Notes under the pieces: generated by a model
Seen by the model: the letters and a program-made list of their open reading frames with translations, nothing else
Database searches by the model: none
Told to the model about the DNA's origin: nothing
Translations under genes and position numbers: made by a program
Part shown: piece by piece, positions 291 to 37,481 of the stretch
Numbering within the stretch: the stretch's first letter is position 1
Layout: the number at the start of each line of letters is the position of its first letter
Assembly: GCA_947627155.1 (NCBI GenBank)
Contig: CANQUX010000002.1
Span: 1 to 64,000, forward strand
Reading direction: 5' to 3'
Length of the DNA: 64,000 nt
From: an uncultured Alphaproteobacteria bacterium
Lineage (GTDB): Bacteria > Pseudomonadota > Alphaproteobacteria > CAAHEQ01 > UBA3637

Positions 291-1238
291 ATGTATAAAA
301 AAACACAAACGCTCACTGACTTGATTCTGTGGATGCAGGATAGCGCTGACGGTGTGTCAATTAAAGACATTATGGGGAAATTTAATGTTTCGCAGCGAAC
401 AGCTGTCAGAATGAAAGATGCTATTGCCGAAAAATATCCGCAAATTCAAGAAATAAGCGGTCGCTATAATACCAAGCGTTGGAGGCTTCCCCAAGGAACC
501 GGTAAGGAAATAATTACATTTTCAACGGAAGAAATCCATGCACTTCAAAATGCTTCCAAGCTTTTAGCAACAAAAAATATGATAGATTCCCGCTATATTG
601 ATACGGTTTTACATAAAATTAAGGCCATAATCGGTAATGATGCGGTGAACCGAATTGAACCGGATGCCGAAGCTCTGTTGGAAGCTGAGGGTTATGCCTT
701 CAGGCCCGGACCGAAAATTATCATAAATATAGAACATTTAAAGCGACTCCGTTATGCAATTATTGCCTGCAATCGCATTAAAATAAAATACGATTCCGAG
801 CACAATAAAGATTGGCGGGAGCTATTCCCTTATGGCTTTTTGTATGGAAACAAGCATTATTTAATCGCTTGGGATCCGGCAAAGCGCAAAATGTGCCATT
901 TTAACCTGAATAAAATAAAGGAAATTGAGGTTTTAAACACCTATTTTAAGCGCGATCCTCATTTCTCGCTTAAAGAATTTAGTGAACAAGCTTTTGGCGT
1001 ATATCAGGAGGAGCCCTTTGATGTAGAGTGGTTATTTGATGCTGAAGTTGCCGATTCGGCGCAGCAATACACTTTCCATCCGAAGCAAGAAACAATTCGT
1101 AATTCGGACGGCACATTGACAGTAAAGTTTAGAGCCGGCGGTGCACGCGAGATGGACTGGCATCTTTATACCTGGGGTGGTCATGTTAAAGTGATGAAAC
1201 CGGTGGATTTTGAAGAACTTCGTAAACGGAGAAATTAA
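291..1238 (+). CDS. WYL-domain transcriptional regulator with N-terminal HTH
   Basis: N-terminal HTH-like segment; C-terminal WYL-like region (YDSEHNKDWRELFPYGFLYGNKHYLIAWDPAKRKMCHFNLNKI). Confidence 0.8.
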   Translation: MYKKTQTLTDLILWMQDSADGVSIKDIMGKFNVSQRTAVRMKDAIAEKYPQIQEISGRYNTKRWRLPQGTGKEIITFSTEEIHALQNASKLLATKNMIDSRYIDTVLHKIKAIIGNDAVNRIEPDAEALLEAEGYAFRPGPKIIINIEHLKRLRYAIIACNRIKIKYDSEHNKDWRELFPYGFLYGNKHYLIAWDPAKRKMCHFNLNKIKEIEVLNTYFKRDPHFSLKEFSEQAFGVYQEEPFDVEWLFDAEVADSAQQYTFHPKQETIRNSDGTLTVKFRAGGAREMDWHLYTWGGHVKVMKPVDFEELRKRRN

Positions 1239-1416: not shown

Positions 1417-4400
1417 ATGGCCGGAAAATTAATAACTAATCAAGAAACAACATTGTCTGATTTATTTCAAAACATATTGCCTCGCAGTAAAGAAATATGT
1501 TTTTTAGTCGGGTATTTTTATTTTTCTGGTTTCCCGGAATTTTATAAAAACATAGAAAAGAATAAATTGCGCATACTAATCGGATTAGATATTGAAGTGA
1601 CTCCTCTAAACAAGGTAAGAGAATATGAACAATTTGAACGAAAACGTATGTCGAAATGTAAAGATCAACAAGACTTCTATAAGCAATTTGTTGAGTTATA
1701 CAATAGAACAAATTTTTTTGATACGCAAGAGAAACAAGAGGCATTTAAGGTTTTCTACGATAAAATAAAAGATGGCTCTTTGGAAATTAGAAAAACAGCT
1801 GAGCCTAATCATGCCAAAATGTATTTATTTGAAGAAGAGGGAAATGATCCCACTTTGCCGGGGCATATGATTGTAGGTTCTAGCAATTTATCTATACAAG
1901 GCTTAAAAAATAGGAATGAAATTAATGTTGTTTTTCATGATGTGGACTACAATGAAGGTAAAAAATTATTTGAAAAATTATGGGAAAACGCCACACCGAT
2001 TGCAGATAAAGATACCCTTGATCTTTTTGAGAAAAACGTGATGCAAAATATTTGGTTCGAAAAGATTCCATCGCCTTATATCGTTTATCTAAGGATTCTG
2101 AAAGAGTATTTTGAAATCAAATGTAAAGATGCAAATTTTAAAACTCCTCATATGATTAATAACAATTATATGGATTTTGAATATCAAACTGATGCTATTA
2201 AAAGTGGATTAGATAAAATTGATCGCCACAATGGTGTCATCATTGCTGATGTTGTTGGTTTAGGAAAAAGTATTATTGCAGCTTCAATTGCCGCAAATTT
2301 AAATTTACATGTAATTATTATTACTCCTCCTCATTTAAAATCTCAATGGGAAGATTATTGCCAAGATTTTGGAATATTTTACCGAACACACATATATACG
2401 AATGGGAAAATAGAAGATGCACTTAAAGATTTCGGTAAAGGTTCAAATCAGCAACATTTAGTCATTATTGATGAAGCACATAAGTACAGAAATCAAAAAA
2501 ATACGGATTATTTAAGATTACACCAACTATGCCAAGGAAATAAAGTTGTATTATTAACGGCTACACCTTATAACAATAGACCGCAGGATATATATGCTTT
2601 ATTGAAATTATTTCAAATTCCTGGGAAATCAACACTTAAAAATATTGATAACTTAGGAGCTCACTTTGAAGCGTTGATTGCTGAATATAATAAAGTAGAA
2701 CTGGAAGCTAAGAAAAATGATACTAAATTAGATGCTTTTAATTCAAAAGCTAAAGACATAGCTGATAAAATTCTCAACATAATATCTCCAGTTGTCATTA
2801 GAAGATCAAGAAAAGACTTGGAAATTATATCAAGATACAAAAAAGATTTAGAAAAACAGGAGATTTCATTCCCAAAGGTCAGCGATCCTGTGGTAAAAGA
2901 ATATGATTTAGGAAAAGTAGAAAATTTATATATAGAAACATTGGATGCTATTTACGAAAAAGGTAGTGATGATTTGGATATTATATCTTCCTCCAGTTAC
3001 AGAGCTGCTCGATATCAACCTTTGCAATATATAAAAGATGAAGCTCTTGAACAGATACGTAAGAAAATTGAAAAAGAAGGTATGGAATTTAATTTTTTCC
3101 AACGTTCACAGAAAAATTTGGCCAATTTCATGCGTAGATTGCTGGTACACCGTTTTGAAAGTTCTATTAGTGCATTCAAGATATCTTTAGAAAATATGAT
3201 TTCTACATCTGAAAATATTTTAAATTGGATTAGAGAAAGAAATACTATTCCAGTATATAAGCGAGGCAATCTACCAGATATTGAGGAAATGATATATACA
3301 TCTAATGATGATGCTCCAGATATGTTTGGGAAATTTGAATTAGACTATCAAATTGAAAAACTTAACGGTAAAGGACTATTTGAGATTAGTATCGATGATA
3401 TACGTCCAGAGTTTGTTGATTATATTAAAAACGACTTAAATATTTTGAATAAAATAAAAAAATCTTGGTTCGGAAAAAACAATAAAATCATAGCAGATCC
3501 TAAATTAGATAACTTTTCCGGCGAGGTTGAAAGAATGCTAACTTCAGATCCAAATAGAAAAATAGTTGTTTTTACCGAATTTGCCGATACAGCTGAATAT
3601 TTACATAAATCACTTTTAGAAAAAGGAATGCCTGTATTCCTCTATTCATCAAGAATAGCCTCAGAAAAAAACAAAAAAATAATTCGTGAAAATTTTGATG
3701 CTGGTGTTCCAAAGGCAGAACAAAAAAATGATTTTTCTATTTTAATCGCTACAGATGCAATTTCTGAAGGTTATAATTTACATCGAGCAGGAACTATCTT
3801 TAACTACGATATTCCATATAATCCAACACGTGTGATTCAACGTATTGGTCGTATAAACCGAATTAATAAAAAAGTGTTTGATGAATTATACATCTATAAC
3901 TATTTCCCATCTGTTATTGGAGAGCGGGATGTTAGAGTTAAACGTATTTCAACCATTAAAATGCGTATGATTCACGCAATTATGGGCGGTGATATGAAAA
4001 TATTAACTAAAGATGAGCAACTATTTTTCTCTGAATTTAATAAAAAAATTAGAGAATTAGAAAATGCTACAGAACAAAAATCATGGGATACAGAATATCG
4101 TGAAGAATGGGAACAAGCAAAAAACAGTTCTTATTACGAGGAGGCAATAAAAATATGTCAACGTACAAAAATTGCAAGGATTTCAACCGACAGAATGGGA
4201 GTTATTATTTTTGGAAAACGTGGTAATGAATGTATATTTAGATATTCTGATATTAATGGCAAACCACAATCTTTGCTTCCTGAAATGGCTTTGCCGATAT
4301 TTAAGGCTTTTAAAGATGAAAAAGCAGATAAAGTATCCTCAAATTTTTATAAAGTATACGATAATTTGGAAAAAAATCTTTTCAAATCGGCAGAAGTCCC

Positions 4401-4665
4401 TTTATCCAATATACGAGGAAAGGCTTTAGCACGAGTAAAGTTATGGCTTAATGAAAATACTTGTAATAATGAAGATTACTTAAATATACTGCAACAAGTA
4501 ATAGAGCTAGATGGATTACCTGATTATTCTAAAATATGTAGTGCAAAAAAATATGAAGATGTACAAAAAATTATATCAATACATTATTTGGAAAAAATTA
4601 TAGATGCTTCTAATAAAATTGATGAAGAACCTGAAAATGTTATCCTAGCGGAGGAATTTAAATGA
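1417..4665 (+). CDS. PLD-like nuclease domain fused to SNF2/DEAH superfamily 2 helicase
   Basis: HAKMYLF...GSSNLS PLD-type motif; Walker A-like VVGLGKS; DEAH box (VIIDEAHKYRN); helicase C motif (ATDAISEGYNLHRA...RVIQRIGRINRI). Confidence 0.88.
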   Translation: MAGKLITNQETTLSDLFQNILPRSKEICFLVGYFYFSGFPEFYKNIEKNKLRILIGLDIEVTPLNKVREYEQFERKRMSKCKDQQDFYKQFVELYNRTNFFDTQEKQEAFKVFYDKIKDGSLEIRKTAEPNHAKMYLFEEEGNDPTLPGHMIVGSSNLSIQGLKNRNEINVVFHDVDYNEGKKLFEKLWENATPIADKDTLDLFEKNVMQNIWFEKIPSPYIVYLRILKEYFEIKCKDANFKTPHMINNNYMDFEYQTDAIKSGLDKIDRHNGVIIADVVGLGKSIIAASIAANLNLHVIIITPPHLKSQWEDYCQDFGIFYRTHIYTNGKIEDALKDFGKGSNQQHLVIIDEAHKYRNQKNTDYLRLHQLCQGNKVVLLTATPYNNRPQDIYALLKLFQIPGKSTLKNIDNLGAHFEALIAEYNKVELEAKKNDTKLDAFNSKAKDIADKILNIISPVVIRRSRKDLEIISRYKKDLEKQEISFPKVSDPVVKEYDLGKVENLYIETLDAIYEKGSDDLDIISSSSYRAARYQPLQYIKDEALEQIRKKIEKEGMEFNFFQRSQKNLANFMRRLLVHRFESSISAFKISLENMISTSENILNWIRERNTIPVYKRGNLPDIEEMIYTSNDDAPDMFGKFELDYQIEKLNGKGLFEISIDDIRPEFVDYIKNDLNILNKIKKSWFGKNNKIIADPKLDNFSGEVERMLTSDPNRKIVVFTEFADTAEYLHKSLLEKGMPVFLYSSRIASEKNKKIIRENFDAGVPKAEQKNDFSILIATDAISEGYNLHRAGTIFNYDIPYNPTRVIQRIGRINRINKKVFDELYIYNYFPSVIGERDVRVKRISTIKMRMIHAIMGGDMKILTKDEQLFFSEFNKKIRELENATEQKSWDTEYREEWEQAKNSSYYEEAIKICQRTKIARISTDRMGVIIFGKRGNECIFRYSDINGKPQSLLPEMALPIFKAFKDEKADKVSSNFYKVYDNLEKNLFKSAEVPLSNIRGKALARVKLWLNENTCNNEDYLNILQQVIELDGLPDYSKICSAKKYEDVQKIISIHYLEKIIDASNKIDEEPENVILAEEFK

Positions 4666-7600
4666 GATTAGATCAAGCATATGATAGAAATGAATTTGTA
4701 AATTTTATTGTTGATTTTCTTCCAGATGATTTTGAAATTAACGAAACAAGTATTTCCTATTCTCATGGAATTATTAAAAGCATTGTAAGATTAGGAAAGT
4801 GCACTAATAGCTTAAAAAAAATAGAAGTTTTTGAAGTGACACACTCCTCAATTTCTGATGCTAGAATCACATTATCACGAGAAATATTCAAATACATGCG
4901 TCAAAATGCAATAGAATATGCGTTAGTGGCTTTTATTTCTGAAAATTCAAAATCTGTCTATAGATTATCCTTTATTACAATGGCTCCAAAAGATAATAAT
5001 GGAAAGTTAGAATTTGAACATTCCAATCCAAAGCGTTTTTCCTTTTTACTTGGCGAAAATCAACATACTAGAACCCCTCAAAATTATCTGATAGATAGAG
5101 GTAAGATTCAAAGTCTTGATGATCTCAAAAATAGATTTTCAATTGAGGTACTCACTAAGGATTTCTACGATGAATTATTCAAGTGGTATGAAAATGCGAT
5201 AAACGTTTTTGTACCGTATCCCCCAACTGATACAAAAAAAGAAGAACATATTATTCGACTTATAACCCGTTTAATGTTTGTTTGGTTTATAAAACAGAAA
5301 AATTTGGTTCCGGAAAGCCTTTTTGATGAAAATGAACTTACAAGTATATTAAAAAATTTCAATCCAAATGATACTACAAGTAGCACATATTACAATGCAA
5401 TTTTACAAAACTTATTTTTTGCTACATTAAACTGTGAGATAGAGGATCGTCAGTTTTCATCTGATAGTACTGAATCTTTTAGAGGATATGATAATGATTA
5501 TAGAATTAAAACAAAATATCGGGACAACAATAGGCAATCATATTTTATTAAGTCTCACGAAGAAATAATCAAATTATTTGAAAGCGTACCTTTCCTGAAT
5601 GGTGGTTTATTTGAATGTCTTACCCGTGAGGAAGACGATTCTATACCGGATGATGGTTTTAGTCGTGATAAAAATAAACGAGCATTCGTGCCTAATAATA
5701 TCTTCTTTGATAAGAATACTGGCATTATATCTATTTTTAAAAAGTATAATTGGACAATCGAAGAAAACTCACCGGCTGATATCGAAGTTGCATTAGATCC
5801 TGAACTGCTTGGCAAGGTCTTTGAAAACCTATTGGGTACCTATAATCCAGAAACAAGAGAAACCGCAAGAAAAGATTCCGGATCATTTTATACTCCACGC
5901 CAAATTGTTCAATATATGACAGATGAAAGCCTTACCGCCTGTTTAGCAAAAAACATAGACGGGAATAATAACAAAGCATACCGTTTAATATCATCTCTTG
6001 ATTTACCTGATGATATTAAGAACGATACAGAATACTGCGAAAAAGTGGTTGATGTTTTACAAAATATTAAAGTTTTGGATCCGGCATGTGGCTCTGGAGC
6101 ATTCCCAATGGGATTATTAAATCGCATTGTTGAAATTGTGTGTAAAATAAAACCAGACATTAATAAATATAATTTAAAGCTAAATCTAATTGAAAATTGT
6201 ATTTATGGCGTTGATATTCAAACAATCGCTATTCAAATTTCAAAATTACGGTGCTTTATCTCGCTTATTTGTGAACAAGACCGCAATAATGATAAAGCGG
6301 ATAATTATGGCATCCATCCACTACCAAACTTAGAAACAAAATTTGTGGCAGCAAATACTTTAGTATCACTTAATAAAAGTGTATCGGATGAAATGAAATT
6401 CCCGGATGAGACACTTGATAAATTAAAGAAAGATTTATATGAAATACGTGTTCATCAAATGATTAAGGTTCCGTCCTATAAAAAGAAGAAAGATCTTCGC
6501 AAAAAGGACAAAGAATTATGTAAACAACTGACCTTATTTGTATTTAACAGATTAGCTACTCCTAATCAAGAGCGTATAAATATGTGCCAAAAAGAAATAG
6601 AAGCAAAAGAAAAAGAAAAAAAGAACTATATAGGAAGTAAATATGAAACAATAACTGAAAAACGGTTTTTGTTTGATGCTCTTGAACCACAACAAACCTT
6701 TACAATTGATGTCAACAAGCAAAAACGTGATAAACTTGATAGTGATATCAAAAGACTTTACGAAACTATTAAGAAAGAGAAAAATAAAGCTTCATCATCT
6801 CAAACAGAACAGGAAATTAGACGACTCATAGAGTGGGATCCTTATAAACCAACCGTATCTTCTGACTTTTTTGATGCTCATTGGATGTTTAATATCCAAG
6901 ATGGATTTGATATTGTTATCGGCAATCCTCCGTATGTTCAACTTCAAAAATTACCAGAGCCGATAAAAACTGTTTATAAAAATCAACAGTATATGTCTTT
7001 TAATTCAATGGGAGATTTATACTGTTTATTCTACGAAAGAGGTATTCAACTACTCAAAGAAAAGGGGATTTTATGTTATATTACCTCAAATAAGTGGATG
7101 AGAGCTGGATATGGGGAAGCTTTGCGTTCATTTTTTTTAAAGTGCAATCCGACCCTTTTAATTGATTTAGGTGCTAATGTTTTTTCAAGTGCAACTGTTG
7201 ACACCAATATATTACTTGTCGAGAAAAAAGGGTATGATAAAAAAACGCTTTCATGTACTCTATTAGACCGTCAACAAGAAATGAGCGTTTTTGTTCGACA
7301 GAATGCCATAGAGATGGAATACACAAAAGATGCCTGGGCAATCCTTAACCCAATTGAACAGTCAATTAAAGCTAAAATTGAGAAATATGGTACTCCACTC
7401 AAGAAGTGGGATATCTCAATTAATTATGGTATCAAAACTGGTTGTAACGAAGCTTTTATAATCACAGGGGAGAAGCGAAAAGAGTTAGTAGCAGAGGATC
7501 CAAAATCTGACGAGATTATACGACCGATTTTACGCGGCAGGGATATTAAACGATATGGATACGAATTCGCTGATTTGTGGTTAATTGCGACTTTCCCGAG

Positions 7601-8159
7601 CAAACATTACAATATAGATGATTATCCGGCTGTAAAAAAATGGCTTCAATCTTTCGGAAAAAAGTTAGAACAAACCGGAGAAGAATATATTGATGAGTAT
7701 GGAAAGAAGCAAAAATGTCGAAAAAAAACGAATAACAAATGGTTTGAAACACAAGATAGTATAGCTTATTGGAACGATTTTTCTAGACAGAAAATAATGT
7801 ATAGTGAAATTGTTTATGCACCTCAATTTTTTCTCGATAAGGATGGCATGTTTTATCCAGAAGCAACAAGTTTTATTATGACAGGAGATAAACTGGAATA
7901 CTTATTAATAGCCTTACATTCAAAACTGCTAGTATACGCATTTAAAACTTTTTATGCAGGAGGTGGATTAGGAGAAACGGGTTATCGATATAAGAAAGCA
8001 TTTTTAGAAAAATTACCAGTATATCATGTATCTGATAAAGAGTTTGAGACCTGTAAAAACATGCTAAACAAAAAGAATTTTAGCGAATTTGAAAAATTTT
8101 TATCATCTGTTTACAAATTATCAGAAGAAGAAATTACTTTTGTTGAGAAGTTGTCTTAA
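4662..8159 (+). CDS. Eco57I-class N6-adenine DNA methyltransferase with C-terminal target-recognition region
   Basis: Motif I VLDPACGSGAF, motif IV VIGNPPYVQL; 4-bp ATGA overlap with the helicase gene. Confidence 0.9.
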   Translation: MRLDQAYDRNEFVNFIVDFLPDDFEINETSISYSHGIIKSIVRLGKCTNSLKKIEVFEVTHSSISDARITLSREIFKYMRQNAIEYALVAFISENSKSVYRLSFITMAPKDNNGKLEFEHSNPKRFSFLLGENQHTRTPQNYLIDRGKIQSLDDLKNRFSIEVLTKDFYDELFKWYENAINVFVPYPPTDTKKEEHIIRLITRLMFVWFIKQKNLVPESLFDENELTSILKNFNPNDTTSSTYYNAILQNLFFATLNCEIEDRQFSSDSTESFRGYDNDYRIKTKYRDNNRQSYFIKSHEEIIKLFESVPFLNGGLFECLTREEDDSIPDDGFSRDKNKRAFVPNNIFFDKNTGIISIFKKYNWTIEENSPADIEVALDPELLGKVFENLLGTYNPETRETARKDSGSFYTPRQIVQYMTDESLTACLAKNIDGNNNKAYRLISSLDLPDDIKNDTEYCEKVVDVLQNIKVLDPACGSGAFPMGLLNRIVEIVCKIKPDINKYNLKLNLIENCIYGVDIQTIAIQISKLRCFISLICEQDRNNDKADNYGIHPLPNLETKFVAANTLVSLNKSVSDEMKFPDETLDKLKKDLYEIRVHQMIKVPSYKKKKDLRKKDKELCKQLTLFVFNRLATPNQERINMCQKEIEAKEKEKKNYIGSKYETITEKRFLFDALEPQQTFTIDVNKQKRDKLDSDIKRLYETIKKEKNKASSSQTEQEIRRLIEWDPYKPTVSSDFFDAHWMFNIQDGFDIVIGNPPYVQLQKLPEPIKTVYKNQQYMSFNSMGDLYCLFYERGIQLLKEKGILCYITSNKWMRAGYGEALRSFFLKCNPTLLIDLGANVFSSATVDTNILLVEKKGYDKKTLSCTLLDRQQEMSVFVRQNAIEMEYTKDAWAILNPIEQSIKAKIEKYGTPLKKWDISINYGIKTGCNEAFIITGEKRKELVAEDPKSDEIIRPILRGRDIKRYGYEFADLWLIATFPSKHYNIDDYPAVKKWLQSFGKKLEQTGEEYIDEYGKKQKCRKKTNNKWFETQDSIAYWNDFSRQKIMYSEIVYAPQFFLDKDGMFYPEATSFIMTGDKLEYLLIALHSKLLVYAFKTFYAGGGLGETGYRYKKAFLEKLPVYHVSDKEFETCKNMLNKKNFSEFEKFLSSVYKLSEEEITFVEKLS
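7279..7403 (+). repeat. Left arm of 125-bp perfect inverted repeat inside the methyltransferase gene
   Basis: Base-by-base identity with the reverse complement of 8941-9065. Confidence 0.95.
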
Positions 8160-9063
8160 CAATAAGTTGTATTTCCTCTTTGCTAAGCTTGTAAATTGTA
8201 TATAAATATTGATCTATTTGATTTTCTAAATCTTTTGTATCAGCTGAACAATTGTTAGTTTTTAACTGATTTATTTGCTCTACAAGATGAATAATTTTTG
8301 ATTGTATATCTGATGAAGTATTTAAGATTGGAAACTTTATAAAAATGTCTTTTTGAGCAATTGTTGTAGCTCCTCCTAAAGAATTCATTGATATACAACC
8401 AAAATAATAACATATCTTTGAATTTAATAAACCTAACAAAAATTTTAAATCAAGTTTATCAGTCCATATAAAATATTCATTGCTACTTAAAAAACATCCA
8501 TTATTATCAAAAGCAAATGATCCTTTTCGAAATTGACCATAAACAATTTTCTGTCTAGAAAAATCGTTCGTATAAGCACAACTACGTAATTCCCACCAAT
8601 AATCACCTTTATCATCCCTATTTATAAGACCTTTACCTTTTGTTTTAGCATTTGAGACTTGCATGAAATGCTTATATATTGCAGGATATTTTGATTTAAT
8701 AAATTCCTCCGGGGGTGTTTTTCCGCGGTGTTTATTGGTAAAACCGCATTCTATATTTATTAACCACAAATCAGCAAATTCATAACCATATCGTTTAATA
8801 TCCCTGCCGCGTAAAATCGGTCGTATAATCTCGTCAGATTTTGGATCCTCTGCTATTAACTCTTTTCGTTTTTCTCCGGATATGATAAATGCTTCATTAC
8901 AACCTGTCAAAATACCTCTATATATACTAATATCCCAGTCCTTGAGTGGAGTACCATATTTCTCAATTTTAGCTTTAATTGACTGTTCAATTGGGTTAAG
9001 GATTGCCCAGGCATCTTTTGTGTATTCCATCTCTATGGCATTCTGTCGAACAAAAACGCTCAT
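8134..9063 (-). CDS. Silent alternative C-terminal/specificity cassette of the adjacent methyltransferase
   Basis: 309-aa ORF homologous to methyltransferase residues 874 onward; two in-frame stops (TAA TAA) directly precede its ATG; converges with and overlaps the end of the active gene. Confidence 0.9.
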   Translation of the reverse strand: MSVFVRQNAIEMEYTKDAWAILNPIEQSIKAKIEKYGTPLKDWDISIYRGILTGCNEAFIISGEKRKELIAEDPKSDEIIRPILRGRDIKRYGYEFADLWLINIECGFTNKHRGKTPPEEFIKSKYPAIYKHFMQVSNAKTKGKGLINRDDKGDYWWELRSCAYTNDFSRQKIVYGQFRKGSFAFDNNGCFLSSNEYFIWTDKLDLKFLLGLLNSKICYYFGCISMNSLGGATTIAQKDIFIKFPILNTSSDIQSKIIHLVEQINQLKTNNCSADTKDLENQIDQYLYTIYKLSKEEIQLIVKTTSQQK

Positions 9064-9065
9064 TT
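8941..9065 (-). repeat. Right arm of 125-bp perfect inverted repeat
   Basis: Reverse complement identical to 7279-7403. Confidence 0.95.
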
Positions 9066-9153: not shown

Positions 9154-9786
9154 ATGATTTATGCATATATTAGGGTCTCTACTGACAAGCAAACGACAGA
9201 AAACCAAAGATTTGAAATTCAAAAATTCTGTCAAAGAGAAAATCTTCAAGTAGATGTTTGGGTAATGGAGACAATTAGTTCTACCCAAGATTTAAAAAAA
9301 CGAAAATTAGGAAGACTACTTCATAAACTAAAATCCGGAGATATTCTGATTGCATCTGAATTGTCTAGACTTGGCCGAAATTTATTGCAGGTTATGAGTA
9401 TTTTGCATTTGTGTATGAATAAAAATGTTCAAGTATGGACGATAAAAGATAATTATCGACTTGGAGCAGATATTCAAAGCAAAGTCTTAGCGTTCGCTTT
9501 TGGTATATCAGCAGAAATTGAAAGAGATCTTATTTCTCAACGTACCAAAGAGGCTCTGATGCGTGTTCGTGCTGCTGGCAAAGTTCTTGGCAGACCGCTT
9601 GGACGTCAAAGCACTTTTGTTAAGCTTAGTGGTAAAGAAAATAAAGTAAAAGAGCTTTTAGATCAAAAAATTTCTAAAAGTGGTATAGCTAGAATATTAG
9701 GAGTACATAGAATTACTGTCGCTAAATTTATTAGGGAAAGAGTACAACAAAATGCTCCCGCAGGAGTTATTCCTGCAGGAACTTGA
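9154..9786 (+). CDS. Serine recombinase (resolvase/DNA invertase family)
   Basis: YIRVSTDKQTTENQ catalytic-Ser region, SELSRLGRNLLQ, IERDLISQRTKEAL, C-terminal HTH (SGIARILGVHRITVAKFI). Confidence 0.92.
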   Translation: MIYAYIRVSTDKQTTENQRFEIQKFCQRENLQVDVWVMETISSTQDLKKRKLGRLLHKLKSGDILIASELSRLGRNLLQVMSILHLCMNKNVQVWTIKDNYRLGADIQSKVLAFAFGISAEIERDLISQRTKEALMRVRAAGKVLGRPLGRQSTFVKLSGKENKVKELLDQKISKSGIARILGVHRITVAKFIRERVQQNAPAGVIPAGT

Positions 9787-9799
9787 GAAACTGCATCAA

Positions 9800-10060
9800 T
9801 TACTTTACGACTTTCTTCAAAACTGTATCGGCTTTGAGCTTAGGAGCTTTTGATGCCGGGATTTTGATTTCTTTACCGGTAGCAGGATTGCGGCCTTTAT
9901 GAGCGGCGCGTTTTGCTACTTCAAATGTACCGAAACCGGTAATTTGAATTGATTCACCTTTTTTCAAGGCTTTTGTAACAACTGTGACAACCGCATTGAC
10001 CAATTCATTTGCGGCGGCTTTGGTGGCGTTAGCTTCTTTAATATCTGGTTTTTCGTCAAT
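9800..10060 (-). pseudogene. HU-family DNA-binding protein, 5'-truncated
   Basis: ITGFGTFEVAKRAAHKGRNPATGKEIKIPASKAPKLKADTVLKK is HU; HU-like frame extends to about 10060 (DIKEANATKAAANELVNAVV) but meets a stop without a normal start. Confidence 0.75.
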
Positions 10061-10064
10061 TAAT

Positions 10065-10568
10065 CCAAATCAATTAAAATATAATGTTGCTCTTATTTTT
10101 ACGGATGATGAAGAACAAGAATTAAAATCGATCGAGCGGGTTTTAAATGCGATATATCCCAAAATAGAAGGAAAAGGAATCTTTGGTTGTTTTGTGTGTG
10201 AACCGACTGAAATGAAACCTCTCGTGGGACAGCGTGATATAGTTATCGGGGATGACAAACATTTTATTCCTCCTGGAATTTATTGTCGTATACAAGATAT
10301 TCAACCTAATTCAGAGTTTAAATACTGTATTGGTGGAATAAAGCTAAATTTTATGATTTCACATCTGCCCCAGTATAATGTGAAAAAAATTTTAAAGAGT
10401 ATGTGCTCTTATGTTCGTATTTTAAATGAATATATAGCAAAGACACAATTAGAACAAGCAAAAGACTTCTTCGTCAACTATCTTATCTGCAATGTTGTAA
10501 GCGGACATAACCACAATTTATCGCATCTGAATCAAATTAAAAATGAGCGTAATAATCGATCACGATAG
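10065..10568 (+). CDS. Hypothetical protein, probably a fragment; the listed ORF start (9984) lies antisense to HU
   Basis: Protein-like from NPNQLKYNVALIFTDDEEQE onward. Confidence 0.4.
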   Translation, partial: PNQLKYNVALIFTDDEEQELKSIERVLNAIYPKIEGKGIFGCFVCEPTEMKPLVGQRDIVIGDDKHFIPPGIYCRIQDIQPNSEFKYCIGGIKLNFMISHLPQYNVKKILKSMCSYVRILNEYIAKTQLEQAKDFFVNYLICNVVSGHNHNLSHLNQIKNERNNRSR

Positions 10569-11253: not shown

Positions 11254-11890
11254 ATGGTATTGTTTAATACAAGTTTAATGAAAGGAAGAAAAATGAGCTT
11301 ACTTTCTGTTGAAAATGCTGCCATTTCCGGTCATAACGGAATGTTGTTTGAAGATTTATCTTTTTCTATCAATGAGGGGGGCAAACTTGGATTAGGTGGA
11401 AATAACGGATGCGGGAAATCCACTCTTTTGAATGCTATTGCCGGCGAAACAGAATTATCAAAAGGATCGATAAGAAAGAAGAAAGGGTTGAAAATTGGAT
11501 ATATTGCTCAATCAGTTCCGGTTCACTTCGAAAATATGACGCTTCGACAGGTATTAGAAGATGCTGTTCCTCCACAAGGATTAGATTATTCTCAATATAA
11601 AGTCGATATGGCATTGGAAGCGCGAGGGGCTCCTTCAAATATCTGTAATCGTAAAATGAAATTATTAAGTGGTGGTCGGGTATGTAGATCAAGAACTCTC
11701 AATGTTGCCTCCGGAAAAGAATTTACATGATTTTATTCAAGAGCATTTCTCTTTGGATAAAACAAAGACAATCAGAGAATTGGTTAATGCCGGTTTTTCA
11801 ATAAATGAACAAAATGCAAAAATCGGAACATTGAGTTATGGCCAAAAAGCAAGAATGGCTTTTTTGATTTTAAAGAACGATTTATCTTGA
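11254..11890 (+). pseudogene. ABC-F type ATP-binding protein, internally deleted and frameshifted
   Basis: Walker A GGNNGCGKST and LSGG in the first ORF; GYVDQELSMLPPEKNL...TLSYGQKARMAFLILKNDLS in another frame. Confidence 0.8.
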
Positions 11891-22813: not shown

Positions 22814-23290
22814 TTAATTTAAGTTGATTGGAAGCATTCGATGAACCAAAATGTGAAGCCGGTCACACGTTTTCATCAGTTTGTTGTAGTCCGAATCCAT
22901 AACGATTGCCATGGCATCTTCGGTTAATGTCGGTCTGTCACGAATTTCAAGTTCTGAGGTAATTTCCCAAAGATAACCATTCAGAAGTTTTGCCTCAAAT
23001 TGTTGTGTGAACCGAGCTTCCTGACTACTCAGTCCCATGCCTCCGAGAAGTGTGATAAAGAACCATTCGCCACCTTCTTTTGCATGGTATTTATACCATG
23101 CTTCAAATATGCAAAATTGGTCCGGATTCATCAGCCAGCGCACAGAAATCCTAGACGGTGTCTGCGTATATCGCCGTCTTTGACGTGCCGGACCGGCTTC
23201 CATATCTGTCCGAATAATGGCTTCACCCGGTTTGATAGAGTAATTGTCAACGGTCGGATAGGGCAAATGTTGTGGAAAATAAACGCTCAT
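22814..23290 (-). CDS. Phage minor tail protein
   Basis: Position between tape measure and fibre genes. Confidence 0.55.
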   Translation of the reverse strand: MSVYFPQHLPYPTVDNYSIKPGEAIIRTDMEAGPARQRRRYTQTPSRISVRWLMNPDQFCIFEAWYKYHAKEGGEWFFITLLGGMGLSSQEARFTQQFEAKLLNGYLWEITSELEIRDRPTLTEDAMAIVMDSDYNKLMKTCDRLHILVHRMLPINLN

Positions 23291-25932
23291 CTGTAACTCC
23301 CATAAGCCGGATTTAACGCATACCTTTGTTCCAAAATCGGCGATAAACCCTCACCTTTACTGATGTTTTTACCGATTACACCTTCAATCTGCTCAACAAT
23401 GATATCCAGATTAATATTGCCGTTCATGTCGCGTGTCGGGTTTGCCGTTGTCCTTGTGCCTGAGGCCTTATTGACCACATTCACATTGACGTAAACCGGC
23501 GGTTTTGAATTGAGTTCTGCGCCCAGTGCTTTCATTTGTCCCGGCGTGAATACCGTTTCGCCTTTTTTCGCGATAATCGGAATCTCGCCGCCGACCAAAC
23601 CTCCGGTATGAAAACGGGGAGCATTTTCAAAAACACTTGGACTAACAGCCTTAACTGATAAAGAATCCGTACCAATAACACCTCCTGTATGCGCTGTCGG
23701 AATGCCGAAGTAGCCCATAATACCGCCCATAAGCGGTTGTATCACGGCATATTGCATAGCCATTCGGACCATTCCCTCGACAACTGAGTTAACAAAATCT
23801 CCAAAGTTCGCTTTACCGGTCATGACAAAGTTTGTCAGCGTATCTTCCATTGATTTGAAAGAATTCTTAATCAAACTTTCGGTCATGGAAGCCATGTCCG
23901 AAGCATCGTTATAAACGCTTTTCATTCCTCGGGTTAAACCGTCTTTCCAATCTGTTGAACTTTGAAGAGCGGCTTCGCCTGCTTTTTTAACCATATCGTC
24001 ATAAACCCGGTTTACATCATTTTTAAAATCCTCATAGCCGGCTTTGGTTTTATCCAGGTTTTGAAGGGCATCATCACGCCATTTGGCCGCTTTTTGCATG
24101 GCCTGATCATAAGGATCCTGCAATTCAAAAACCTTTTGTTTGATGTCCTCAATAGTCTTTTCATAAGCTGATGTGTCAGTTTTTGGCACGACAGGCAGTT
24201 TCGGAACTGCCGGCTTTTCTTCTTTCGGCCTGAGTTCCGGGTTTTGAATGTATTTCAACTCATCACGCGCCTTTTGTGCATCTATCTCAGCTGCTTTCAA
24301 AAGCAAAAGTTTTTCTTGTATTTTATCAGCTTGTGGTTTGAAATCCGGATATTCTGATGCCAAGTTCCAAATCTCGCGCTCATATTCCTCCAAGTTGTAT
24401 TTTGACTGCGAAAGAATATCGGCCAGATCATTTGCAAAAATCTCGTATTCTTTCAAAAACATATTTGGCATATGGCGTTGAAAGAACGAAATTCCCCCGG
24501 TATCTTTTAATTCTTCCTTCAGGTCCTTAATGTTCTTTTCTGCCACCTTTAATTTATACGACCATTCGGCAACAGCTTGATTCTTGCTTTGAGCGGTAAC
24601 GAGGTTATTTGTTTCTTTGACTGTTTCGGCCATTTGTTCCTTCAGTTTTGCTAAGGTTTCCGAGTGATCATTTGCCGCCCGTTTTGCCACATTATGACTA
24701 TCTATCAATTTATAAAGGCCATAGACAACCAACATAACAAGCCCGGCCGGGCCACCAAGCAGAGCCATAATACCTTTCAAAAGTCCGACCGCACCGGCAA
24801 GAACCTTTGCCGCTACCGCGGTTGCGTACATCTGCACAGCGGCCACCTTGGAAACTTGCCACATCATTTTAAGGCCGAGTGTAGCAGAGGCTCCGGCTGT
24901 TCCAGTTCCCATAAGAGCGACATTCAGCGCATAAACGCTTGCTTTTAAGAGGTCAATTCCTTTTGTAATCAGGCTTGCACCCAAACGGACAGTTAAGAGC
25001 GTGATGATCGGCTCAATGTATTGGGCTAATGTAAAGAACGCTTTACTTGCCACGTTGACAGCAACTGCCAAGGTTTGGCCGATGGCTTTTGCCGCTTCAC
25101 CTGATCCGTCCAGCAATTCATTGAACTGCAAAAATGCCTCTTTCAGAGCTTTGTTCAGACCGTTTTCACCAACTGATCGGACTAATTTACTGATAGCATC
25201 TTCAATGTTGGACATGGCACCGCCCATGGTGTCCATTTGTTCCCTCATCGCGCCGCCAAAGTTCACAAGTCCGATAGATTTTAAGTAGGCTTCAATTTCT
25301 TGCGCACTTTTACCAACACTTGTTGTAATACCTTGGAAAGTGAACAGGACTTTGTCACCCTCGACCTGCGTTTGAATACCAAAGGTCCGGAGCGACTTAA
25401 AATTCAGCATCACCGCTGAAGAAACGGCATTTGTAAAATCCATGATATTCTTAGAAAAGGCAGAAGCGGTATTTCCGTATGAGGTTAAGGCCTCAGATGT
25501 GGCATCAAGGCCCAACGCCTTTAACCGAATAAAGGCCTCAATAATCTCTTCCAACTGATATGGCGTATCCAACGCAAACTGTTCAATCATAGAAAAAGCC
25601 TCTTGTGCGCCCTTGGCCGAACCGGTCACCGTTTTTAAGGATCCGATTAAGCTTTCAAACTCTTTGTTTGTCTGCACAATACCCTTAAATACCGAAGTCA
25701 GACTGCGTAATCCAAGGTATGCTCCGACCAATGATGCCGCCTGTTTCAGGGTATTATTAAAGGCCTTGGCTGTATTATCCAAGACTTTTAAGTTATCATT
25801 TGCAGGTGTGATGACATGAGTTATCCGCTGAAAGGCCTTCTGTCCGTCTGAGCCGATATTCTTGAACTCTTGTCGGACCTTATCGCCCCCCACCGCTTCA
25901 AGCCTGATTGAAAGTTTCTTTGCCGTATTCAT
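23287..25932 (-). CDS. Phage tail tape measure protein
   Basis: 881 aa, N-terminal tape-measure region, hydrophobic core, late-operon position. Confidence 0.88.
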   Translation of the reverse strand: MNTAKKLSIRLEAVGGDKVRQEFKNIGSDGQKAFQRITHVITPANDNLKVLDNTAKAFNNTLKQAASLVGAYLGLRSLTSVFKGIVQTNKEFESLIGSLKTVTGSAKGAQEAFSMIEQFALDTPYQLEEIIEAFIRLKALGLDATSEALTSYGNTASAFSKNIMDFTNAVSSAVMLNFKSLRTFGIQTQVEGDKVLFTFQGITTSVGKSAQEIEAYLKSIGLVNFGGAMREQMDTMGGAMSNIEDAISKLVRSVGENGLNKALKEAFLQFNELLDGSGEAAKAIGQTLAVAVNVASKAFFTLAQYIEPIITLLTVRLGASLITKGIDLLKASVYALNVALMGTGTAGASATLGLKMMWQVSKVAAVQMYATAVAAKVLAGAVGLLKGIMALLGGPAGLVMLVVYGLYKLIDSHNVAKRAANDHSETLAKLKEQMAETVKETNNLVTAQSKNQAVAEWSYKLKVAEKNIKDLKEELKDTGGISFFQRHMPNMFLKEYEIFANDLADILSQSKYNLEEYEREIWNLASEYPDFKPQADKIQEKLLLLKAAEIDAQKARDELKYIQNPELRPKEEKPAVPKLPVVPKTDTSAYEKTIEDIKQKVFELQDPYDQAMQKAAKWRDDALQNLDKTKAGYEDFKNDVNRVYDDMVKKAGEAALQSSTDWKDGLTRGMKSVYNDASDMASMTESLIKNSFKSMEDTLTNFVMTGKANFGDFVNSVVEGMVRMAMQYAVIQPLMGGIMGYFGIPTAHTGGVIGTDSLSVKAVSPSVFENAPRFHTGGLVGGEIPIIAKKGETVFTPGQMKALGAELNSKPPVYVNVNVVNKASGTRTTANPTRDMNGNINLDIIVEQIEGVIGKNISKGEGLSPILEQRYALNPAYGSYR

Positions 25933-33904: not shown

Positions 33905-35347
33905 TCAACGCTCGTCAAAAAGTTTTTTCATACGTTCCTTTTCCCTTGCTCGTTGTTCCAAGACTTCCTCCCAGTCCAAGCCTTGACTTGCACATTCGGC
34001 CTCTAATGTCGAAAGCCCGATATCCATGCGGATTTGGCAGGCCTGAGCTTCCTTGACCGGATCAACCCAGCCGCGTCCCGGGCCGATCCACTTGCATCGG
34101 GTGTAAGCATAGCGATTTTCGTAAAAGTCAGGCGCATCAACCAAGCCTTTATTGACGGCTTCTTCCAACCAAAGCTCATAAACCGGCGTGGCCCAATAAG
34201 TTGATAGCCATTGTCGGCGACCGTTAAAGTATCGCCAAGCCTCGAGCAATGCCGACCGGGCTGACGAATAATTGGTCTTTGAAAAGTCTTTCAAGAGCAA
34301 TTCATAAGGAATGTTAAGGCCGGTTCCGATATGGCGGAGCAAGTTTTCAACGAAAGTTCCATAAGCCGAGTTCGGTCGTGATGGTGTGAATGGCGCGACT
34401 TTATCACCAGGAAAAACAGGGATGATAGAGCCACCTTCAAGTTTAACCTGCCAATCCTTTTTCGCAGACAGGTAATCATCACTTGAGCCGCCGAACAGTT
34501 CGTTCAGGCTTTCGCCATCCATCGGAGTTTCAATAAATGCAGCTATCATTGCGTTGACGATCGCGGCCTGAAGCTCGGATCGCTCGTAATGGTCCAACAT
34601 TTTGAACATCGGCATTATGGAACTGAGGACAGGCTTTCCACGAGATTGGCCGATACGACTGATATCGTGAACGTGTAGAACTCGTCTCCGGCCAAATGAA
34701 GTAAATGCCGGAATACGCTCCCAAGACGCAGTTCCTGTCCAAAAGTCGCCCGGGTGGTCTTTTTGAATATAGTAGGCTATCGGTGCACCATATTTATCTA
34801 TTTCAATACCACCGCGGAGGGTTTTGCTATCGGCTTTCCCGTTTGGATTAGAGAGCCGGTCCGGTTCTACCAACTGAATTGCAGTAGAAAACTTCCGGTC
34901 TTTCAGCCATAGCGGAATAGCCAAAGCCTCGCCGTTGATCAGGCAAGACTTGAAAACTTGTGTCGTCAGGCCATGGAAAGTTAAGGATTTGGCCGCATCA
35001 CATTCAAAAGTTTCGGACCAGGATCGCCATAAACTTTCAACATGTGCCTGCCATTCTTCTTCCCATTCCTTGGTTTTGCCGAGTGCCTTATAGTCCGGTT
35101 TAGCCGATAAACGAAACCCGGTGCCGACTATGTTATCGGACAAGGTCTGCATTGCACCGGCGGCAATTCCATGATTTCGCGTTAAGTCACGCGACCGGGC
35201 AACAATGGTGTCCAATTCCGGCAACAAATCGCTGTCGGCAGAACCGCGACCCGGAAGCCACGAGGCAATTTCTCGCAAAGTTTGCGAAGCTGCTTTGTGT
35301 GATGTGTCTGTCATTAAAAACTCACTTTCATAATCCGGCGGCGGCAT
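33905..35347 (-). CDS. Phage portal protein (lambda family)
   Basis: NIPYELLLKDFSKTNYSSARSALLEAWR portal motif. Confidence 0.9.
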   Translation of the reverse strand: MPPPDYESEFLMTDTSHKAASQTLREIASWLPGRGSADSDLLPELDTIVARSRDLTRNHGIAAGAMQTLSDNIVGTGFRLSAKPDYKALGKTKEWEEEWQAHVESLWRSWSETFECDAAKSLTFHGLTTQVFKSCLINGEALAIPLWLKDRKFSTAIQLVEPDRLSNPNGKADSKTLRGGIEIDKYGAPIAYYIQKDHPGDFWTGTASWERIPAFTSFGRRRVLHVHDISRIGQSRGKPVLSSIMPMFKMLDHYERSELQAAIVNAMIAAFIETPMDGESLNELFGGSSDDYLSAKKDWQVKLEGGSIIPVFPGDKVAPFTPSRPNSAYGTFVENLLRHIGTGLNIPYELLLKDFSKTNYSSARSALLEAWRYFNGRRQWLSTYWATPVYELWLEEAVNKGLVDAPDFYENRYAYTRCKWIGPGRGWVDPVKEAQACQIRMDIGLSTLEAECASQGLDWEEVLEQRAREKERMKKLFDER

Positions 35348-35550
35348 GTTGGTGTGCCTTCGGCCGCGGCAATTTGCGATTTAAGAGAGCTGATGTAGCT
35401 TTCAAGGGCTGTCCGGCTCGCTTGGTTATAGGTTGTTGAGCCAAAGTTGCCAACGCTGACCGAAACCTCCTTTTCGCCGATCATCAGTTTGTGATAGGCT
35501 TCTTCGGCTTCTGTCAGGCGGGTTTTAAGAATTTCTATGTTTATAGCCAT
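35314..35550 (-). CDS. gpW-like head-tail joining protein
   Basis: 78 aa; position between terminase and portal. Confidence 0.65.
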   Translation of the reverse strand: MAINIEILKTRLTEAEEAYHKLMIGEKEVSVSVGNFGSTTYNQASRTALESYISSLKSQIAAAEGTPTCRRRIMKVSF

Positions 35551-37481
35551 GGATCATTTACCTTTGTGGGTTGGATTTGAATAAATTTCGGTTGTTTTTT
35601 AACTTTTACTTTTTGGTTCGGTTCCTTTGGAATAGCCGCTTCCAGTTCTTGCCACGCCTTTTCACTTAATCGGTCAAGGCCATAAATTGCCGCACCGGCA
35701 CGCGCATAAACGCGGCAGTCTAAAGCTTCGTTTCGTCGAGTCGGGTCTTTTTCCCAGACGGATTTCGGATAACCGTTGCTTATCTTGACGATTTGGCGTT
35801 CAGCGGTCAGCTGTTTAAAATACTCCTCCGCATACTGAGGAAAATGACAACGACCGAAATCAGTTGCATTTTCGCCGATTCGTTCCATTTTTAACCATCG
35901 GTAAAGCTCAGTTTTGATAACCGGACCGGATACATTCCATACTTTCAGACCTTTCTTTTTCGTATCGGCCTTTGAAGTGGATAGGATCATCGCGGTATCG
36001 CGACTTTGCCCTTTAATGGCAACAACGGTTCTGGGCGCATTGGCTCTGGCGCCGTTACCACCCCAAACGGCTTGGTTAAATTGCCGAACAAAATTGTAAA
36101 CGTCCTGCGTGGCATAACCGGAGTCAACACACATCACTCGGATCGGCATACTAATTCCGCTTTCGTGCGGATAGTCTTTATGAACGACATCTGCCAATTT
36201 AGTCCAAACTTCCGGCTTAGCGGTATCTCCGTCCAAAACGTAATAGTCAACGGACCAACTTTGTTTTTGCCTGCCCCAAGCAACCACTTCGCATTCAATA
36301 CGATTCTTTTGGATATCCACGCCGGCGGTCAGGAACAAACCATCACGCGGTACAACGCCCATCGGGTAATTTTCTCGAGTTTCATAGAGCCGTTGCCATT
36401 CCGGAGCCTCGCTTTCTTGTTCATAAGTTTCACCGAGAATAGTATTCCGGAAACCTTGCATCAGCGTGGCATCTTTCTTGGCTTTTTCGTAAATTTGCAC
36501 GCATTCAGCCCATGATAGCCACCCGACCGGAGAGTAAAGCGAGGACAGATGAAAACCGGCCGTCAGTCCGTCAATAGATTCTGCAGTCGCTTCCCAATGA
36601 CCGGCTTCCAACATCTGCGTTTTATAATGTTCCGCAATCAGCTTATGGCAATGTTCACATTCATAAAAGACAACGCCGTTTTCCTGCGGATGGATTTGTT
36701 CCCATTTAAGGGCCTGAAAACCGCCACAGAACGGACAAGGCAACTTATAATACCGTTGATCCGAGTGCGAAAACTCACGCTCAATGGCCGAAACTCCTTT
36801 TATTGTCGGTGTTGAAACCAAAAATATCTTTTTCTTGGTGTTAAATGTTGCTGTTCTCCGCTCTGCCAATAGGATCGGATCGCCTTCGCCCTCAATATCG
36901 GCCGGATAACCGTCAATCTCATCCATAAACAGGTATCGAGCCGGCATGGAACGAAGCCCGACAGCAGAATTCGCACCGGTCATTACGAGCACGCCACCTT
37001 GGAAGTCCTTTGACAACATCGTATTGCCTTTATCGCGTGAGCGGGCGGAACTGACCAGATTTTTTAGTGTCGGGCAATCCTCAATCAGCGGATCGATACG
37101 CTGGCGCGAGTTACGCTTGGCCATTTCCACTGTCGGCGAGATAGCCATAATCGGACCGGGAGCCTTGTGAATGATGTAGCCGATCCAATTATTACCACAC
37201 TCGGTGCCACCGATTTGTGCCCCTTTCATAAAAACAACCTTTTGGATTGGAGAACGGGGCGAAAGGCAGTCCATAATCTCTTTTAAGTAAGGCGTACGTT
37301 TGGTCCGCCACCGTCCGGGTTCCGCCGCTGACTTTGATGATAAAGTTCGGTAGGCATCTGCCCAATCTGATACCGACATGTAGCTGTCCGGTTCCAACCC
37401 TTTGAAAAATTCGCAGGCAATAAAACCTTCCAAATCAAAGTTTTCGGTCGAGAAGTTCTTCACTGTTTGAGAGGAGCTCAC
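35541..37481 (-). CDS. Terminase large subunit (GpA family)
   Basis: KVVFMKGAQIGGTECGNNWIGY, YLFMDEIDGYP. Confidence 0.92.
   Translation of the reverse strand: MSSSQTVKNFSTENFDLEGFIACEFFKGLEPDSYMSVSDWADAYRTLSSKSAAEPGRWRTKRTPYLKEIMDCLSPRSPIQKVVFMKGAQIGGTECGNNWIGYIIHKAPGPIMAISPTVEMAKRNSRQRIDPLIEDCPTLKNLVSSARSRDKGNTMLSKDFQGGVLVMTGANSAVGLRSMPARYLFMDEIDGYPADIEGEGDPILLAERRTATFNTKKKIFLVSTPTIKGVSAIEREFSHSDQRYYKLPCPFCGGFQALKWEQIHPQENGVVFYECEHCHKLIAEHYKTQMLEAGHWEATAESIDGLTAGFHLSSLYSPVGWLSWAECVQIYEKAKKDATLMQGFRNTILGETYEQESEAPEWQRLYETRENYPMGVVPRDGLFLTAGVDIQKNRIECEVVAWGRQKQSWSVDYYVLDGDTAKPEVWTKLADVVHKDYPHESGISMPIRVMCVDSGYATQDVYNFVRQFNQAVWGGNGARANAPRTVVAIKGQSRDTAMILSTSKADTKKKGLKVWNVSGPVIKTELYRWLKMERIGENATDFGRCHFPQYAEEYFKQLTAERQIVKISNGYPKSVWEKDPTRRNEALDCRVYARAGAAIYGLDRLSEKAWQELEAAIPKEPNQKVKVKKQPKFIQIQPTKVNDPWL

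What the first reader, a model, noticed from the sequence alone, without database searches (positions are those of the whole stretch)
7279..9065. Invertible specificity switch in a helicase-associated adenine methyltransferase
Seen: the 3' third of the methyltransferase gene is followed, in opposite orientation, by a homologous 309-aa ORF. Both begin with the same 125 bp (7279-7403 versus reverse complement of 8941-9065, no mismatch found), then diverge, and their 3' ends overlap at 8134-8159. The silent copy is preceded by TAA TAA and has no visible SD. ATG 7281 is in frame with the gene (codon 874), so inversion across the arms would replace the last 292 residues with 309 and give a 1182-aa protein instead of 1165. 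Established: invertible specificity segments are known for hsdS of Type I R-M and pglX of BREX. Inference: this is the same logic on a PLD-helicase/Eco57I-class methylase pair.
Basis: partly seen in the sequence, partly recalled or inferred. Interest (0 to 1): 0.92.

Follow-up and report, generated by a model that had tools for sequence, protein, structure and literature searches.

The report
Shuffling specificity switch in DNA methylase
A bacterial DNA-modifying defence enzyme carries a spare, backward-facing copy of the part that chooses which DNA sequence to mark, with its own DNA-flipping enzyme next door, so the cell can probably swap recognition parts, and relatives caught in opposite arrangements show that such swaps do happen.

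Summary
The 3' third of an Eco57I/TaqI_C-class adenine methyltransferase (4662-8159) is mirrored by a silent inverted cassette (8134-9063), with an exact 125-bp repeat at 7279-7403/8941-9065.

(1) A Mpi-family serine invertase lies 90 bp beyond the cassette (9154-9786; NCBIfam PRK13413, E 1e-94). (2) There are three matched sites, not one: S1, S2 and S3 share GANCGWTTTTNNNNGRCAG, and all eight module combinations stay in frame. (3) The layout recurs: PLD-SNF2 helicase + methyltransferase + inverted cassette + Mpi occurs in Bacteroidales, gut Alphaproteobacteria and Lactococcus plasmids.

Inverted alleles exist in nature. Lactococcus plasmids pUCCL629A and pJM1F carry the same modules in opposite positions. 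MAG loci L021/L023 have swapped only the S1-S2 module. Silent and expressed modules diverge under strong purifying selection, and expressed states are 10:9 across 19 loci.

S1 is strongly supported as a crossover site, S2 well, S3 weakly. To my recollection Type II programmed inversions were already reported (Milman 2023, not readable here), so this is a new variant of a known kind.

The parts
1417..4665 (+). PLD (HKD) nuclease - SNF2 helicase, 1082 aa, predicted restriction arm
   Evidence: Pfam PLDc_2, SNF2-rel_dom, Helicase_C; PADLOC HKD+Snf2 7e-34; HAK.Y...GSSNls motif conserved in relatives
4662..8159 (+). Eco57I-class N6-adenine methyltransferase with C-terminal TaqI-like specificity domain, 1165 aa; 4662-7280 is the constant part (873 codons)
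   Evidence: Pfam Eco57I 2.6e-36, TaqI_C 7e-6; PADLOC REase_MTase_IIG 6e-153; NPPY and DPACGSG motifs invariant
7281..8159 (+). Expressed specificity cassette (292 codons)
   Evidence: Homologous to the silent cassette, 52% aa identity
8134..9063 (-). Silent specificity cassette (309 aa), no ribosome-binding site
   Evidence: Pfam TaqI_C 7e-10
9154..9786 (+). Mpi-family serine DNA invertase, 210 aa
   Evidence: NCBIfam NF009949/PRK13413 315.7 bits, cut-off 272; Pfam Resolvase 2e-32; PDB best hits DNA invertases 4m6f, 3uj3
7283..7301 (+). S1, expressed side (inside the exact block 7279-7403)
9043..9061 (-). S1, silent side (inside the exact block 8941-9065)
7522..7540 (+). S2, expressed side (inside the exact block 7489-7558)
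8804..8822 (-). S2, silent side (inside the exact block 8786-8855)
7772..7790 (+). S3, expressed side (exact block 7772-7795); use as a crossover site uncertain
8551..8569 (-). S3, silent side (exact block 8546-8569); use as a crossover site uncertain
291..1238 (+). WYL-domain regulator; possible regulator of the system, but not found beside the relatives
   Evidence: Pfam WYL 1.4e-9, WCX 1e-6; no WYL hit in the 80 related loci

Best explanation
This is a site-specific specificity shuffler built into a two-gene, restriction-modification-like defence system. The PLD-SNF2 helicase is the predicted attack arm and the Eco57I-class methyltransferase marks self DNA. The adjacent Mpi-family serine invertase recombines short sites that lie in frame inside the methyltransferase's specificity domain and in the opposed silent cassette. 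Recombination at S1 exchanges the whole 292/309-residue specificity region; recombination at S2, and possibly S3, exchanges only the modules beyond it. Repeated events would give up to eight in-frame enzymes from two cassettes, each expected to methylate its own motif, so a clonal population becomes epigenetically mixed and its self/non-self code changes. Shown directly: the anatomy, the invertase family, the matched sites, frame preservation, and inverted or module-swapped alleles in relatives. Inferred: catalysis by this Mpi, flipping in this genome, a changed methylation motif, and the restriction role of the helicase.
For: Exact in-frame inverted blocks and all eight combinations open. Mpi-family invertase 90 bp from the silent cassette; among 36 relatives with enough sequence 16 have both inverted cassette and Mpi, and plasmids without a silent cassette also lack Mpi. 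Inverted alleles: pUCCL629A silent = pJM1F expressed at 98.8/100%, the reverse pair 85.5/84.1%, same position only 71/45%; L021/L023 have swapped the S1-S2 module only. Identity of the two copies starts exactly at S1; S1 is homogenised within loci, 16 of 22 identical 19-mers versus 1.25 shuffled, beyond control motifs. An S1 matrix from Bacteroidales ranks S2 and S3 first and second in the window's cassettes. States 10:9; dN/dS 0.03-0.10 between silent and expressed modules; contig ends pile up within 0.5 kb after S1, 26% versus 1-2%.
Against: No reads: only one orientation of this genome is seen. Mpi catalysis is by association, and four other Mpi-type genes exist in the genome. S3 is no more homogenised than control motifs. 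The shared-site test within the window is only moderate (P 0.003 with S1 fixed to the first 28 nt, 0.045 otherwise). The sites do not match the published B. fragilis Mpi repeat.
Confidence: 0.82

Rival explanations
1. The cassettes exchange by general homologous recombination or gene conversion through the long arms, and the Mpi gene is incidental or acts elsewhere.
For: The window's arms are long (125 and 70 bp exact), enough for RecA. Spread of identity beyond the sites in some relatives (279-310 bp) looks like conversion or recent exchange.
Against: In many relatives the shared blocks are only 18-26 bp yet modules have swapped exactly there. S1 is homogenised more than equally conserved neighbouring motifs. 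Mpi and the silent cassette occur and are lost together. In five loci with another specificity-domain family a half-length inverted cassette also sits beside Mpi with its own short repeat.
Confidence: 0.12
2. The silent cassette is a dead duplication, locked in one orientation in this strain.
For: Only one orientation is seen in this assembly; the silent copy has no ribosome-binding site. Some relatives have lost cassette and Mpi and are locked.
Against: Silent ORF and invertase are intact and the 125-bp identity implies recent exchange. Silent modules of relatives evolve under strong purifying selection, states are 10:9, and inverted alleles exist.
Confidence: 0.05
3. A simple two-state switch: only S1 recombines, and S2 and S3 are merely conserved protein motifs with similar codons.
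For: S1 is by far the most homogenised site; S2 and S3 encode conserved RPILRG and DFS.PK motifs; S3 gain is no larger than controls.
Against: L021/L023 exchanged the S1-S2 module alone, with a 24-bp S2 at the junction. In L032 the silent cassette begins at S2 with no second S1, and L078 has a second cassette of that kind. Module classes occur in all combinations. S2 has the motif in a different codon phase from S1 and S3.
Confidence: 0.25

Closest known systems
Programmed inversions in Type II restriction-modification genes (Milman, Yelin and Kishony, NAR 2023, PMC9881135; citation verified, text not held, content from memory)
   Same: Inversion between an expressed Type II gene and an inverted partial copy that changes the protein; as I recall, validated with public long reads
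   Different: I could not check whether this family, its Mpi invertase or its several internal sites are described there
Type IIG system Pin17FIII of Prevotella intermedia 17 and its Rikenella microfusus homologue (PMC5608340)
   Same: Rikenella locus L060 has the same helicase, methyltransferase, inverted cassette and Mpi. Three related motifs in the native host but one in the E. coli clone, as a switch predicts
   Different: The authors did not report inversion or an invertase; the extra motifs were left unassigned
Phase-variable hsdS shufflons of Type I systems (S. pneumoniae PMC4948785; B. fragilis PMC3090145)
   Same: Inverted repeats inside specificity genes, silent copies, module shuffling, changed methylation
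   Different: Here specificity lies in the methyltransferase chain, there are no HsdR/M/S subunits, and the adjacent recombinase is a serine invertase (PsrA of S. pneumoniae is a tyrosine recombinase, PMC7096588)
BREX pglX with invertible cassettes (from memory; no held paper describing it was found)
   Same: Adenine methyltransferase of the same superfamily with a switchable C-terminal specificity part
   Different: No PglZ or BrxC beside this system; the methyltransferase scores far below the PglX cut-offs
Mpi of Bacteroides fragilis
   Same: Same recombinase family
   Different: Known targets are promoters flanked by ARACGTTCGTN (PMC8375218). Here the sites are coding and do not carry that repeat: matches are at chance level
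BREX-related Type-2 / Hma systems (PMC12839542)
   Same: HKD nuclease fused to SNF2 helicase plus an N6-methyltransferase
   Different: Those are centred on a DUF499 ATPase, with DUF3780 in Type-2; neither is found beside this pair

Membership tests
Mpi-family serine DNA invertase | Score above the curated model cut-off | tested here: met
   NF009949 315.7 bits, cut-off 272
Mpi-family serine DNA invertase | Target repeats of the B. fragilis type, ARACGTTCGTN | tested here: not met
   9 matches with up to one mismatch in 64 kb, 8.0 expected; none is a repeat pair at S1, S2 or S3
Invertible specificity gene (general kind) | Inverted partial copy with in-frame exact repeats | tested here: met
Invertible specificity gene (general kind) | Both orientations observed | tested here: inconclusive
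   Met in relatives; not observable in this single assembly
Invertible specificity gene (general kind) | Change of methylated motif on inversion | not testable with these tools
   Needs methylomes; indirect hint from the three motifs each in P. intermedia 17 and R. microfusus (PMC5608340)
Type IIG restriction-modification | Gamma-class methyltransferase and target recognition domain in one chain | tested here: met
   closest folds CamA, BrxX, BseCI, MmeI, BpuSI
Type IIG restriction-modification | Nuclease domain in the same chain | tested here: inconclusive
   N-terminal 135 residues modelled alpha-beta-beta-beta-alpha-beta, but no conserved catalytic (D/E)xK in 40 relatives; the HKD nuclease is on the helicase
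Type I restriction-modification shufflon | Separate HsdR, HsdM and HsdS subunits | tested here: not met
   No such genes between 291 and 11063
BREX | PglX above cut-off, with PglZ and BrxC | tested here: not met
   PglX models 46-86 bits, cut-offs 400-900; no PglZ or BrxC among the neighbouring genes; the contig starts 290 bp before the WYL gene
DISARM | DrmD above cut-off, with DrmA, DrmB and DrmC | tested here: not met
   DrmD 149 bits, cut-off 610; no DrmB or separate DrmC among the neighbours
Hma / BREX-related systems | DUF499 ATPase (and DUF3780 in Type-2) | tested here: not met
   No such domain among the neighbouring genes; definition from PMC12839542

The most novel reading that the evidence does not exclude
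One dedicated Mpi-type serine invertase uses three short degenerate sites, all inside coding sequence and in two codon phases, to reassort three sub-modules of a single target recognition domain. A two-gene PLD-helicase/methyltransferase defence system thereby becomes a combinatorial specificity generator (eight enzymes from two cassettes, more with imported third modules) that spreads horizontally across phyla.
Probability: 0.5. Interest if true: 0.78.

Novelty: new variant of a known kind. Interest (0 to 1): 0.62.

Why it matters
It would add a serine, Mpi-type invertase and a single-chain methyltransferase architecture to phase-variable epigenetics. It offers a concrete explanation for published unassigned multi-motif methylomes (P. 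intermedia 17, R. microfusus). Natural inverted alleles on small Lactococcus plasmids, such as the 15-kb pJM1F, let switching, motif change and phage restriction be measured in an easily handled host. The module junctions also mark sub-parts of a target recognition domain that evolution swaps freely, which bears on how such domains read DNA.

Tried and rejected
Considered and rejected: membership in Type I, BREX, DISARM and Hma systems; a dead duplication; B. fragilis-type Mpi sites.

The full-length AlphaFold model is mediocre (mean pLDDT 70, pTM 0.48) and poor around the sites, so I draw no structural conclusion about where S1-S3 lie. A model of the isolated specificity domain did not finish.

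The counts of the site pattern in window and genome are partly circular, because the pattern was read from the sites; the unconstrained triple-block test gave only P 0.045. The shared motif therefore rests mainly on the cross-family matrix scan and on the relatives.
Full report
What is there. The window starts at the first base of a contig of a 1.56-Mb draft genome. Reading rightwards: a WYL regulator (291-1238), a 1082-aa protein with an N-terminal PLD (HKD) nuclease domain fused to an SNF2 helicase (1417-4665), and, overlapping it by 4 bp, a 1165-aa Eco57I-class adenine methyltransferase with a C-terminal TaqI-like specificity domain (4662-8159). Then come a 309-aa specificity domain in opposite orientation (8134-9063) and, 90 bp further, a 210-aa serine recombinase (9154-9786). 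The system is AT-rich: 30-32% GC for helicase, methyltransferase and cassettes, against 41% for window bases 12,000-64,000. No comparable methyltransferase was found in the other genomes searched from its genus, family and class, so the system was probably acquired horizontally.

The repeats. It is the first of three main exact blocks: 125 bp at the start of the specificity domain, 70 bp over the RPILRGRDIKRYG motif, and 24 bp over the NDFSRQK motif. Each block holds one copy of GANCGWTTTTNNNNGRCAG. That pattern has exactly six matches in the 64-kb window even with one mismatch allowed (0.13 expected), and six exact matches in the genome, all at S1, S2 and S3 on both sides. The pattern was read from these sites, so those counts show uniqueness rather than independent proof. 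Independent support comes from a matrix made only from the S1 sites of relatives, nearly all Bacteroidales: its two best hits in the rest of each of the window's cassettes are S2 and S3, and S2 is the top hit in most relatives.

Relatives. A search with the constant part of the methyltransferase kept 80 loci. Of 36 with at least 3.5 kb beyond the arm, 18 have a detectable inverted specificity cassette, 22 an Mpi-family gene, 16 both and 24 at least one. The combination occurs in many Bacteroidales, in MAGs labelled Alphaproteobacteria, and on Lactococcus plasmids, where the public annotation already names the 'master DNA invertase Mpi family' gene. In nearly every locus the identity between the expressed and silent copies begins at the GAGC of S1 or one or two bases before it, and in several it covers only 18-26 bp. 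Several silent copies have no start codon there. S1 is homogenised within loci (97% identity, 16 of 22 identical 19-mers) far beyond shuffled pairings (78%, 1.25 identical) and beyond neighbouring conserved coding motifs. S2 shows a weaker effect in the same direction (10 of 21 identical versus about 1); S3 is not distinguishable from the controls.

Inverted alleles. Two comparisons show the switch in different states. First, plasmids pUCCL629A (NZ_PP589677) and pJM1F (NZ_CP016750, listed as pJM1D in PMC6458302) carry the same system at about 93% identity up to the cassette. The first modules of the silent cassette of one are those of the expressed cassette of the other (98.8% over module 1, 100% over the next 220 nt). 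The reverse pair is 85.5 and 84.1%, same-position identities are only 71 and 45%, and the sequences outside S1 stay in place. The part after S3 differs in all four cassettes. Second, L021 and L023 are 98.5% identical over 7.4 kb. Their S1-S2 modules have changed places, their S2-S3 modules have not, and everything after S3 differs in all four cassettes. Further cross-genome matches of 91-92% pair an expressed module in one genome with a silent one in another. Across 22 loci with both cassettes, 19 hold the two alternative module-1 classes (INYGIKTG, IYRGVLTG and close variants) in opposite positions, with 10 expressing one and 9 the other. Module-1 and module-2 classes occur in all combinations. 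Silent and expressed modules diverge with dN/dS of 0.03-0.10, so silent copies are exposed to selection. Contigs end within 0.5 kb after S1 in 26% of loci, against about 1-2% per 0.5 kb elsewhere, the usual sign of a repeat or mixed orientation in assembly.

Sites other than S1. In L032 the silent cassette begins at S2 and no second S1 exists, and L078 has a second cassette of that kind. Five loci with a different specificity-domain family have half-length inverted cassettes beside Mpi; four start with a shared short repeat, ACGTCC..TT.TTGAAGAC, and the fifth (L017) with a related one, reminiscent of the same motif. Lactococcus plasmids pUCCL635A and pLLUC147A and a Parabacteroides plasmid have helicase and methyltransferase with neither cassette nor Mpi: locked versions.

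Mechanism, with status. Shown: anatomy, invertase family, site layout, frame preservation, and inverted and module-swapped alleles in relatives. Inferred: that this Mpi acts on S1 and S2 (perhaps S3); that flipping occurs in this organism; that motifs change; and that the helicase restricts unmethylated DNA. A published observation fits. P. intermedia 17 carries a system whose two proteins are 62-65% identical to those of Rikenella microfusus; it shows three related motifs in the native host but only GGYGAB when cloned in E. coli, and R. microfusus shows three motifs too (PMC5608340). The R. microfusus locus here (L060) has the full inverted-cassette and Mpi layout. The authors left the extra motifs unassigned. 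I did not examine the P. intermedia 17 locus itself.

Known or new. Type I hsdS shufflons are well known. Programmed inversions in Type II systems were, to my recollection, reported by Milman et al. 2023, whose citation I could verify but whose text is not held. Against that background this is a new variant: a PLD-helicase/methyltransferase pair, an adjacent serine invertase with a site unlike that of B. fragilis Mpi, and module-wise exchange at more than one site. It is not a member of BREX, DISARM, Hma/BREX-related or Type I systems, because tested defining features fail. Whether it is strictly Type IIG is open: the N-terminal domain lacks conserved nuclease residues. A structure model of moderate quality matched gamma-class methyltransferases such as CamA, BrxX, MmeI and BpuSI.

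Noticed in passing
G000:C15:36473-36898, C20:1175-1603, C5:41666-42088, C13:27682-28107 (L117-L120): Four further Mpi-family serine recombinases in the same genome, 54-61% identical to the window's; no clear inverton around them, though two have pilin-like genes nearby and C13 has a 2050-aa ORF beside it.
   Followed up: partly
window 15400-45800: Lambda-like prophage: portal 33905-35347, terminase 35541-37481, tape measure 23287-25932, large serine integrase 44071-45777.
   Followed up: no
window 9984-10568 and 11254-11730: Apparent gene remnants next to the system: a piece of an M20 peptidase (weak Pfam match) and a short ABC-type ATPase-like ORF (by eye).
   Followed up: no
L017, L040, L045, L050, L059: A divergent specificity-domain family has half-length inverted cassettes beside Mpi, four of them starting with the short shared repeat ACGTCC..TT.TTGAAGAC, as if the same switch had been rebuilt on another scaffold.
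   Followed up: partly
L021, L023, L113, L114, L115, part of the cassette after S3: The last module differs completely between systems that are otherwise 93-99% identical, so a larger pool of third modules must exist and be imported at or near S3.
   Followed up: partly
L060 (Rikenella microfusus), L078, L089, expressed copy after S1: The expressed frame stops 77-113 codons after S1 in these assemblies: possible OFF states, sequence errors or decay.
   Followed up: no
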